From contig JAIQFS010000052.1 in NCBI GenBank assembly GCA_020073145.1, forward strand, positions 1 through 64,000: a DNA stretch of 64,000 nucleotides, given 5' to 3'. The translations under genes were made by a program, and so were the position numbers. The notes under the pieces were generated by a model, which saw nothing but the letters and a program-made list of their open reading frames with translations, had not been told where the DNA came from and ran no database searches. Below, one piece after another: positions 50,656-53,802 of the stretch; positions within the stretch are counted from its first letter, which is position 1; each line of letters begins with the position of its first letter. This stretch comes from Terriglobia bacterium. Lineage in GTDB: Bacteria > Acidobacteriota > Terriglobia > Bryobacterales > Bryobacteraceae.

Positions 50656-53600
50656 CTATGTCTTGCCTGGATAAGCCCTGGTCATCGAAGTCCCCGTTTC
50701 GGGATGGCCGGTGGCGATCAGGCTTTCGTAGAGGCTCAGGTAGTCGCGGGCGGAGTGGGTCCAGGAATAGTCGGCTGCCATGGCATTCTGCATCAGCGTT
50801 TGCCACTGAGCGGGTTGGTGGAAGGCCGCTACTGCGCGGTCCACCGCGTCCAGTAGCGCGGTGGGCTCGTATGCTTCGAAGAGGAAGCCGGTGCCGGTTT
50901 TCGCAGCCGGATCGAACTCCTGCACGCTGTCTTTCAGGCCGCCAGTGGCGCGCACGATGGGGATGGTGCCGTACTTCAGGCTGTAGAGTTGATTCAGGCC
51001 GCAGGGCTCATAGCGTGAGGGCATCAGGAAGAGGTCGGCTCCGGCTTCCACCTGGTGGGCCAGGCTTTCGTCAAACGCGATTCGGACCGACAGGTTTCCG
51101 GCGTGGCGCTTCGCGGCAGTCTGGAAGAGGTCCTCGTAGTGCTGGTCGCCTTTTCCCACCAAGAGTAACTGCACAGGGCGGTCGAGCAGATCGGGCAGAA
51201 CTTGCTCCAGCAGATCGAAGCCTTTTTGCGCGGCCAGGCGGGAGACCATGCCGATCAGCGGCACGTCCGGATCCACCGGCAGCCCGAAGGCGGATTGCAG
51301 ATCGGCCTTGCAAGCGCGCTTGCCGGAGAGATCGTTGGGGCCGTAGGGGGCGGCGATGAAGGAATCGGTCTGCGGGTTCCAGGCCTCGTAATCCACGCCG
51401 TTGAGGATGCCGACCAAGCGGGCGGCGCGCTCTTGGAGCACACCCTCCAAGCCGAAGCCGTGCTCCTTCGTCTGGATCTCGCGGGCATAGGTGGGGCTGA
51501 CGGTGGTGATGGCATCGGCGAAAGAGAGGCCGGCCTTGAGGTAGTTGATCTTGCCGTAGAACTCGAAGTGGCGCGGGGTGAACAAGCTGCTGTCGAGTCC
51601 CAGCAGCCGCCACTGGTCGGACGGAAAGAGGCCCTGATAGCCCATGTTATGCACCGTGAGGGCGGTGCGCACCGTGGACAGTCCGGGATAGCGCTCGGGC
51701 TGCGCCTTGAGGAACGCAATGGAGAGCGCGGCCTGCCAGTCGTGAGCGTGGAGCACGTGCGGGGCGCCGATGTGGCGCAACACTTCCAGCACGGCGCGGG
51801 CGAAGTAGGCGAAACGCTGGGCGTTGTCCGGGTAATCGCCTTCGGAGGTGCCGTAGGGGGCAGCGCGGTCGAAGTAGCGGTCGGCGCGGATGAAGTAGAC
51901 CGGGATGTCGCGGCCGAGGGTGGCGGTCAGGACGGCGCCTTCTTCGCGGCCGCCGGCCACGGGAACCTGGAGCTGCATGCCGGTTTCGCGCAGCGCGGAA
52001 CCCCTCTGGAGCACGCTGCGATAGGCGGGCATGATCAGGCATACCTGGTGGCCGAGCCGTTCCAGGGCGGCGGCGAGCGACGCCACCATATCCGCTAAGC
52101 CGCCGGTCTTGGCAAAGGGGACGATTTCGGAGCAGGCCATGACGATGCGAAGCGGCGTCTCGGGCGACCGGCGGGGTGGCGGGAGAGGCAGCAGGGCCTC
52201 GAGAGGAGCGGCGTTGGCGTCACTCGTGAACGCGGCTGCGGTGGGAATGTCGGCAAAAAGGTTGTCCTGGCCCTCTAGGGTCTGGAGCCAGGCTTCGTCA
52301 ATGGCGCCGCTTTCGATCTGCCCGCACAGGCGGTGCATCCGAAGCAGATGGCCTTTGACGCGGCGGATGGCGTAGTCCTCCATGGAGCCGGATTTGATCA
52401 TGAAGGTCCAGTCGCTGGCCTGGGCCAGCAGGAGCTCGCGGCCGGCCTGATTCAAGGCCCGCCGGGCGAGGCCGGTGGCGTTGGTGCGAGCGGCGCTCAA
52501 CTTCTCCATGGCGTCGGCGGCGGCATGCAAGTGGCGATAGACCCAGTCGTTTTCCCCGTTGAGCCAGACCTCGCTGAAGCCGTCCTGGCCCCAACTGGAG
52601 AGGCACGGAGTGGCGATTTGATTGTCGGGCCACTGGTCGAGGTACTCGGACAGGGTCACGAGGCGCACGGTATTCTGCTCGAGCGCGGTTTTGCGGATGA
52701 GGTAATCGAGCCAGCGCGGGCCTTCGAACCACCAGTGACCGAATAGCTCAGCGTCGTAGGGGGCCACGATGAGGGGCGGGCGGTCCATGCTGGCCGATAA
52801 CTCCCGGATCTGCTTGACGCGCTCGTCCAAGAAGTGTTCGGCGTGAGCGGCGGCCTTGCGCTCGGCCCACTCGGGAACGTACGGTTCCTTGCGGTCGCCC
52901 TTACCGGTGATGCGGTGATACTTCAAGCCGGTATCGATGCGGATGCCATCGGGGTGGATGTAGGGGCGGACGAGGTCGAGGTCGAGGTCGTGGCCGATAT
53001 CGCGGTAGAACTCGCGGTAATCGAAATCGCCGGGATAGCCGACGGCGGAACTCCAGACCTGGCGGGAGGAATCGGGATCACGGCCGAAGACGGCCAAGCC
53101 GGAGGGGCAAAAGACGGGGGCAAACACGCCGTAGCGAGGCCGGTGGTCGGCGCGGGTGACACCGTGGGTTTCCAGAATGGTGTAGCGAATGCCTTGCTCG
53201 CGCAAGAGCCGGTCGACGCCCGGGTAGTAGCCGCACTCGGGAAGCCAGAAGCCCTTGGGCTTGCGTCCGAACACTTGTTGGTAGTGCTGGACGCCGACGC
53301 CGATCTGGGCGCGCACGGCGGATTCATTGACGGAGAGCAGCGGAAGGTAGCCGTGGGTGGCGGCGCTGGCGATGACTTCGACCTTGCCGAGTTCCTGAAA
53401 GCGGCGGAACGCGCGCACCAGGTCGTTTCGGTACCGATGCACGAAGGCGTGACGCACGTCAGTCAAGAGGTGGTGGTACATGAGGGCCAGCGGGTGAAAG
53501 TCGGGAAGAGATTCGGTGCGGGCGATCTCCTTTTCGGCCAGCTCGATGGTGCGGTCGAGTTTCTTGAGATAGCGCTGCTGCAGCAGCGGATCGAGCAGCA

Positions 53601-53802
53601 TGGACGCCAGGGTGGGGGTGAGGGAGAAGGTGAGGCGGAAATCAATGCCGTCCTCGATGAGGCGCTCGAGAACCAGGAAGAGAGGAATATAGGTTTCGGT
53701 GATGGCCTCAAAGAGCCAGTTTTCTTCCAGGAATTCCTCGTGCTGGGGGTCGCGAACGTACGGAAGATGGGCGTGGAGGACGAGGGCCAGGAAGCCTTCC
53801 AT
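50656..53802 (-). CDS. GH57 branching enzyme fused to GT5 glycogen synthase
   Basis: A single 1048-residue protein holds two enzymes of alpha-glucan synthesis. Residues ~1-520 are a GH57 1,4-alpha-glucan branching enzyme: 'LHAHLPYVRDP' at the start, nucleophile Glu189 in 'GFWLPECGYYPG', acid Asp350 in 'IVAPYDAELFGHWWFEGP', then the DUF1957 helical part. After a Pro-rich linker (~530-549), a GlgA-type glycogen synthase begins at ~551 ('LRIVMACSEIVPFAKTGGLADMV', with the ADP-glucose-binding Lys565-x-Gly-Gly). It continues with 'HAHDWQAAL', 'GLVSRLAAQKG'-like 'GMVSRLAAQKGFDLL' and 'PSRYEPCGLNQLYSLKYGTIPIV'. Both active sites look complete. Fusion would let nascent chains be branched as they grow. 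The DUF4912 gene is four bases upstream in the same direction. Confidence 0.92.
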   Translation of the reverse strand: MEGFLALVLHAHLPYVRDPQHEEFLEENWLFEAITETYIPLFLVLERLIEDGIDFRLTFSLTPTLASMLLDPLLQQRYLKKLDRTIELAEKEIARTESLPDFHPLALMYHHLLTDVRHAFVHRYRNDLVRAFRRFQELGKVEVIASAATHGYLPLLSVNESAVRAQIGVGVQHYQQVFGRKPKGFWLPECGYYPGVDRLLREQGIRYTILETHGVTRADHRPRYGVFAPVFCPSGLAVFGRDPDSSRQVWSSAVGYPGDFDYREFYRDIGHDLDLDLVRPYIHPDGIRIDTGLKYHRITGKGDRKEPYVPEWAERKAAAHAEHFLDERVKQIRELSASMDRPPLIVAPYDAELFGHWWFEGPRWLDYLIRKTALEQNTVRLVTLSEYLDQWPDNQIATPCLSSWGQDGFSEVWLNGENDWVYRHLHAAADAMEKLSAARTNATGLARRALNQAGRELLLAQASDWTFMIKSGSMEDYAIRRVKGHLLRMHRLCGQIESGAIDEAWLQTLEGQDNLFADIPTAAAFTSDANAAPLEALLPLPPPRRSPETPLRIVMACSEIVPFAKTGGLADMVASLAAALERLGHQVCLIMPAYRSVLQRGSALRETGMQLQVPVAGGREEGAVLTATLGRDIPVYFIRADRYFDRAAPYGTSEGDYPDNAQRFAYFARAVLEVLRHIGAPHVLHAHDWQAALSIAFLKAQPERYPGLSTVRTALTVHNMGYQGLFPSDQWRLLGLDSSLFTPRHFEFYGKINYLKAGLSFADAITTVSPTYAREIQTKEHGFGLEGVLQERAARLVGILNGVDYEAWNPQTDSFIAAPYGPNDLSGKRACKADLQSAFGLPVDPDVPLIGMVSRLAAQKGFDLLEQVLPDLLDRPVQLLLVGKGDQHYEDLFQTAAKRHAGNLSVRIAFDESLAHQVEAGADLFLMPSRYEPCGLNQLYSLKYGTIPIVRATGGLKDSVQEFDPAAKTGTGFLFEAYEPTALLDAVDRAVAAFHQPAQWQTLMQNAMAADYSWTHSARDYLSLYESLIATGHPETGTSMTRAYPGKT

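What the first reader, a model, noticed from the sequence alone, without database searches (positions are those of the whole stretch)
50656..53802. Branching enzyme (GH57) and glycogen synthase (GT5) fused in one protein
Catalytic Glu189 and Asp350 of the GH57 half and the KxGG motif of the GT5 half are all in place. A Pro-rich linker joins them. Coupling elongation and branching in one chain should change branch spacing. GH57 branching enzymes are usually separate proteins.
Basis: partly seen in the sequence, partly recalled or inferred. Interest (0 to 1): 0.66.

Follow-up and report, generated by a model that had tools for sequence, protein, structure and literature searches.

The report
Fused glycogen synthase and GH57 enzyme
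A soil-type acidobacterium encodes, in a single protein, the enzyme that lengthens glycogen chains and an enzyme that cuts and re-attaches them; this pairing is rare, I found no published report of it, and it is conserved in a handful of related genomes, so it could show how bacteria couple the two steps.

Summary
One uninterrupted 1048-codon frame on the minus strand (50656-53802) encodes an N-terminal GH57/BE_C unit (residues 1-519), a ~32-residue linker and a C-terminal GT5 glycogen synthase (552-1028). All catalytic residues checked are present in both halves. It is not a sequencing accident: three further Bryobacteraceae-family genomes and one genome of another acidobacterial family carry the same fused frame at 62-74% identity. 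Both halves are under purifying selection (dN/dS about 0.07-0.20); the linker is not. A sixth genome has a one-base frameshift in the linker.

The GH57 half is of the AmyC (Thermotoga maritima) type, with a short catalytic loop and no tip tyrosine; published enzymes of this type branch weakly and also hydrolyse and transfer alpha-1,4. 'Branching enzyme' is therefore too strong. The genome also has a separate GlgA and two GH13 GlgBs, one divergently transcribed next door, so the fusion is an accessory. In other phyla the two genes sit adjacent, three times in one frame with a single stop between them. I file it as a new variant of a known kind: both enzymes are known, the fusion was not found in the literature searched.

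The parts
50656..53802 (-). fused GH57(AmyC-type)-GT5 protein, 1048 aa, one open frame
52246..53802 (-). GH57 catalytic part plus BE_C (residues 1-519); nucleophile E189, acid/base D350, fingerprint C190, short catalytic loop at residues 218-224
52150..52245 (-). linker (residues 520-551), variable and not under strong constraint
50719..52149 (-). GT5 glycogen synthase part (residues 552-1028); K565-T-G-G, H718, R855, K860, E932
53807..54856 (-). DUF4912 protein; its TGA stop lies 4 nt before the fusion's ATG; keeps this place in relatives
54968..56425 (-). second, short GH57 protein (485 aa, PF03065 only weakly), same operon direction; conserved upstream in G004, G134, G003, G048
56471..57628 (-). 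GT4 glycosyltransferase, first gene of the presumed operon
57939..60368 (+). full-length GH13 branching enzyme GlgB, divergent from the operon

Best explanation
A natural bifunctional alpha-glucan enzyme of an accessory glycogen operon. The GT5 half lengthens alpha-1,4 chains from ADP-glucose (retaining GT-B transfer; E932, K860, R855, K565). The GH57 half cleaves such chains by retaining double displacement (E189 nucleophile, D350 acid/base) and passes the covalently held piece to another chain: 1,6 (branch), 1,4 (chain re-arrangement) or water (trimming), in the proportions of AmyC-type enzymes. Joining them by a flexible linker fixes the ratio 1:1 and keeps both on the same glucan, so new chains are edited where they are made. 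Shown here: one frame, both families, intact residues, purifying selection on both halves, recurrence in relatives, operon context. Inferred: that both halves are active, that they act on the same chain, and any effect on glucan structure.
For: Domains and active-site residues. Fused frames in G000, G003 (cut off by its contig end), G004 (= L004), G134 and G423 at 62-74% identity. dN/dS 0.09-0.14 (GH57) and 0.07-0.20 (GT5) against 0.3-0.7 in the linker (most synonymous distances are saturated, so rough; the close pair G134/G048 gives 0.13 and 0.20). Operon GT4, GH57b, DUF4912, fusion with divergent GlgB shared with G004 and G134. Two GlgC genes supply ADP-glucose. The GH57/GT5 pairing recurs with unrelated GT5 lineages: Omnitrophota L009, L170, L171 (same frame, one stop of each kind between), Margulisbacteria L050 (stop and start overlap), Chloroflexota L070 and L079, L055, and acidobacterium G536. 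DUF4912 fuses to the same GH57 elsewhere (L067).
Against: No activity data exist for any member. The nearest precedent, the chlamydial GlgA-GlgB (GH13) fusion, has a dead branching half (PMC7935935). The genome already holds a separate GlgA and two GH13 GlgBs, so the fusion may be dispensable, and only 5 of 237 family genomes carry it, one of them frameshifted. In G134, G004 and G048 the EPCG motif of GT5 reads EPSG, and in G004 the preceding R is L. The AlphaFold model was too poor to say anything about domain arrangement.
Confidence: 0.62

Rival explanations
1. Chain-length editor rather than brancher: the GH57 half mainly hydrolyses or transfers alpha-1,4 chains and makes few branches, so the fusion makes short, trimmed linear chains that the GH13 GlgBs then branch.
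For: AmyC-type loop and residues; AmyC-type enzymes hydrolyse (up to 30%) and show the highest alpha-1,4-transfer with weak branching (PMC6616209, PMC10346327); Petrotoga GH57 shortens branches made by GH13 (PMC10708623); GlgB lies next door and a second one elsewhere.
Against: AmyC itself still makes 8.5% 1,6 bonds with branching above hydrolysis (PMC6616209); the branching fingerprint Cys190 is kept.
Confidence: 0.22
2. Only one half works: the other is a tether or glucan-binding part, as in the chlamydial GlgA-GlgB where the branching half is inactive.
For: Published precedent (PMC7935935); redundancy of glg genes in this genome; EPCG to EPSG change in some members.
Against: All catalytic residues checked are present in both halves of the window copy, and both halves are under purifying selection. 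Here GH57 keeps a free N-terminus, whereas the chlamydial loss was put down to an N-terminal extension of GlgB.
Confidence: 0.12
3. Artefact or no single polypeptide in the cell: a missed stop or frameshift in assembly, or the chain is made or cut as two proteins.
For: G048 has a one-base frameshift in the linker; the linker is unconserved; Met555 could be an internal start.
Against: Five genomes share one open frame; there is no Shine-Dalgarno-like site before Met555, which would also remove the start of the first strand.
Confidence: 0.04

Closest known systems
Thermotoga maritima AmyC (GH57, PDB 2B5D)
   Same: N-terminal half: 47% identical, same nucleophile and acid/base, short catalytic loop, gatekeeper residues
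   Different: AmyC is a separate monomeric protein; here GT5 is attached at its C-terminus
Bacterial GlgA, GT5 (E. coli GlgA, PDB 2QZS)
   Same: C-terminal half: 42% identical, all catalytic residues, above the TIGR02095 cut-off
   Different: Carries an N-terminal GH57 enzyme; nearest separate relatives found are Chloroflexota GlgAs at 56-59%, not the family's own GlgA (47%)
Chlamydial GlgA-GlgB fusion (Waddliaceae, Criblamydiaceae)
   Same: Glycogen synthase and a branching-type enzyme in one chain (PMC7935935)
   Different: There GT5 is N-terminal and the partner is the unrelated GH13 family with lost branching; here GH57 is N-terminal. Convergent, not homologous
Adjacent GH57 and GT5 genes in Omnitrophota, Margulisbacteria, Chloroflexota
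   Same: Same gene order, in places the same frame with one stop between
   Different: Not fused; their GT5 belong to other branches of the tree

Membership tests
GH57 glycogen branching enzymes | GH57 catalytic part plus BE_C domain | tested here: met
   PF03065 and PF09210 above cut-off
GH57 glycogen branching enzymes | Catalytic Glu and Asp, Cys after the nucleophile | tested here: met
   E189, D350, C190
GH57 glycogen branching enzymes | Long flexible catalytic loop with tip Tyr (high-branching subgroup only) | tested here: not met
   Loop aligns without gap to AmyC 213-220; the insertion of TK1436/TT1467 is absent. Hence AmyC-type, not the 'true' high-branching subgroup
GH57 glycogen branching enzymes | Forms alpha-1,6 branches | not testable with these tools
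   no assay
GT5 glycogen synthase GlgA | Full-length match to TIGR02095 above cut-off | tested here: met
   562 bits against 328
GT5 glycogen synthase GlgA | Active-site residues of E. coli GlgA (E9, K15, D21, H161, R300, K305, E377) | tested here: met
GT5 glycogen synthase GlgA | Uses ADP-glucose | not testable with these tools
   donor choice cannot be read from sequence with certainty
Chlamydial GlgA-GlgB fusions | GT5 N-terminal, GH13 C-terminal | tested here: not met
   reverse order, GH57 partner

The most novel reading that the evidence does not exclude
A self-editing glycogen synthase: nascent chains made by GT5 pass directly to the tethered GH57 site, which sets chain length by cutting and re-attaching, giving a glucan that the separate enzymes of the same cell cannot make. 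This would be the first functional natural synthase-transferase fusion in glycogen synthesis known to me.
Probability: 0.25. Interest if true: 0.68.

Novelty: new variant of a known kind. Interest (0 to 1): 0.5.

Why it matters
How elongation and branching are coordinated in glycogen is usually studied with mixed separate enzymes. A natural one-to-one fusion, with a separate GlgA and GlgB in the same genome as controls, makes that coupling directly testable. A 2021 paper called GlgA-GlgB fusion exceptional in all domains of life, and its branching half was dead (PMC7935935); a second, unrelated fusion with both active sites intact would show that the pairing can be selected for. It could also be of use for making defined alpha-glucans.

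Tried and rejected
(1) Missed stop or frameshift in the window copy: rejected by five fused genomes. (2) Separate translation from an internal start: no Shine-Dalgarno-like site before Met555; not excluded experimentally. (3) GH57 half as a high-branching enzyme of the Thermococcus/Thermus type: rejected, the loop is absent. (4) GT5 half as a copy of the genome's own GlgA: rejected, 47% identical and in another branch; nearest are Chloroflexota GlgAs. (5) Derivation from the in-frame Omnitrophota pair: not supported by the GT5 tree. (6) Two independent fusions (Bryobacteraceae and G423): a single origin is not rejected by either half (AU p 0.32 and 0.45), so undecided. (7) AlphaFold of the whole protein: mean pLDDT 69, GT5 N-terminal part below 50, unusable for domain arrangement. 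(8) Literature: no paper found with a GH57-GT5 fusion; only open-licence PMC was searched.

Full report
What is there. On the minus strand, from 53802 to 50656, the window holds one open frame of 1048 codons. Pfam and NCBIfam divide it into a GH57 catalytic part (6-396), its BE_C helical part (424-519), a linker (520-551) and a complete GT5 glycogen synthase (552-1028; TIGR02095 562 bits, cut-off 328). Against solved structures the first half matches Thermotoga AmyC (2B5D, 501 bits) far better than the Pyrococcus, Thermococcus and Thermus branching enzymes (about 250-310 bits), and the second half matches E. coli GlgA. Residue by residue, E189, D350, C190, H12, W29, R241, W357, W404, S463 and D464 match AmyC's functional positions, and E559, K565, D571, H718, R855, K860 and E932 match E. 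coli GlgA.

The kind of GH57. Within GH57 the enzymes that branch well have a 17-22 residue loop with a tyrosine at its tip. AmyC and 92% of GH57 'branching enzymes' lack it; they branch weakly (10.5 mU/mg on amylose for T. maritima against 480-550 for T. kodakarensis), hydrolyse up to 30%, and do more alpha-1,4 transfer (PMC6616209, PMC10346327). The window protein aligns to AmyC through this loop without a gap and lacks the insertions seen in TK1436 and TT1467. Its likely chemistry is therefore cut, transfer and trim, with some branching.

Is the fusion real? A search of 237 genomes of the same family found fused frames in G000 (this genome), G003 (74%, cut off at its contig end), G004 (69%, the same contig as locus L004, a Bryobacteraceae MAG) and G134 (71%); in G048 the two halves lie in different frames because of a single-base shift inside the linker. 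The 1 TGA reported for G004 is its normal end: the frame is open for 1080 codons. A sample of 396 Acidobacteriota genomes added G423, from another family, with a 1043-codon fused frame at 62%. Samples of 395, 285 and 301 genomes from the phyla of loci L006 (recorded as a deltaproteobacterium), L009 (Omnitrophota) and L070 (Chloroflexota) showed none among the matches listed; strict E-value limits were used there, so diverged fusions could have been missed. Among the 80 closest loci of an 85,000-species collection only L004 is fused.

Selection. Pairwise dN/dS is 0.09-0.14 for the GH57 part and 0.07-0.20 for the GT5 part, against 0.3-0.7 for the linker. Synonymous distances are near saturation for most pairs; the one close pair (G134 and the frameshifted G048) gives 0.13 and 0.20. 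In G048 the shift is therefore recent or a sequencing error. There is no Shine-Dalgarno-like site for separate translation of GT5 at the one position (Met555 and its equivalents) where all fused genes have a start codon.

Context. The fusion is the last of four genes on the minus strand: GT4 (56471-57628), a short GH57 (54968-56425), DUF4912 (53807-54856, stop 4 nt before the fusion's start) and the fusion; a full GH13 GlgB (57939-60368) reads the other way. G004 and G134 keep this whole arrangement, divergent GlgB included; the shorter or partly matched stretches from G048 and G003 keep GH57b, DUF4912 and the fusion, and G423 keeps DUF4912. The genome elsewhere has two GlgC, a separate GlgA (TIGR02095 529 bits), a second GlgB and, on the same contig beyond the window, a GlgP. 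The fusion is thus an addition to a complete pathway.

Origin. The fused GT5 halves group with Chloroflexota GlgAs (56-59% identical; support 100/99 for the joint group), apart from the family's own GlgAs. The fused GH57 halves group with separate GH57 enzymes of deltaproteobacteria and acidobacteria (62-68%). A single origin of the fusion is not rejected by either half (AU p 0.32 and 0.45), nor is it shown. Elsewhere the two genes have come together with other GT5 lineages: in three Omnitrophota genomes they lie in the same frame with one stop between (TAA, TGA, TAG); in a Margulisbacteria genome stop and start overlap; abutting pairs also occur in two Chloroflexota genomes, L055 and acidobacterium G536. 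In one deltaproteobacterial MAG DUF4912 is fused to the same GH57. Such repeated pairing is the usual sign that the products work together; that is inference.

Mechanism. Both halves use retaining chemistry on alpha-1,4 glucan (established for GT5 and GH57). The most likely working is that GT5 adds glucose to chain ends and GH57 cuts and moves pieces of the same or neighbouring chains, with the tether fixing ratio and location. That both are active, and that they share chains, is not shown. The main warning is the chlamydial GlgA-GlgB fusion (GT5-GH13, reverse order), whose branching half was inactive; its authors called such a fusion exceptional in all domains of life (PMC7935935).

Novelty. 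No paper in the open-licence library describes a GH57-GT5 fusion; protein databases may hold annotated copies, and I could not check UniProt or CAZy. Both enzymes are known kinds; the joined form is a new variant.

Noticed in passing
L067:4348-7566 (+): DUF4912 fused upstream to the same AmyC-type GH57 (1073 aa) in a deltaproteobacterial MAG: the operon's other neighbour also fuses in another lineage.
   Followed up: partly
L126:3632-5125 (-) and L008:7661-9160 (+): A very diverged GT5-like protein (33-34% to the fused GT5 half) directly downstream of the GH57 gene in two unrelated genomes; the two are sisters on a long branch.
   Followed up: partly
L009:5902-9108, L170:4723-8106, L171:4137-7253: GH57 and GT5 genes in one frame separated by a single stop codon (TAA, TGA, TAG) in three Omnitrophota genomes.
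   Followed up: yes
L129 about 10160-10230 (G048): One-base frameshift inside the linker of an otherwise intact fusion gene; recent lesion or sequencing error.
   Followed up: partly
window 53807-54856: DUF4912 protein of unknown function constantly placed just before the GH57 gene across several phyla; a likely glycogen-linked protein worth study.
   Followed up: no
L061:4846-7578, L080:4525-7578, L119:445-3078: GH57 branching-type enzymes with 350-490 residue N-terminal extensions that match no Pfam family.
   Followed up: no
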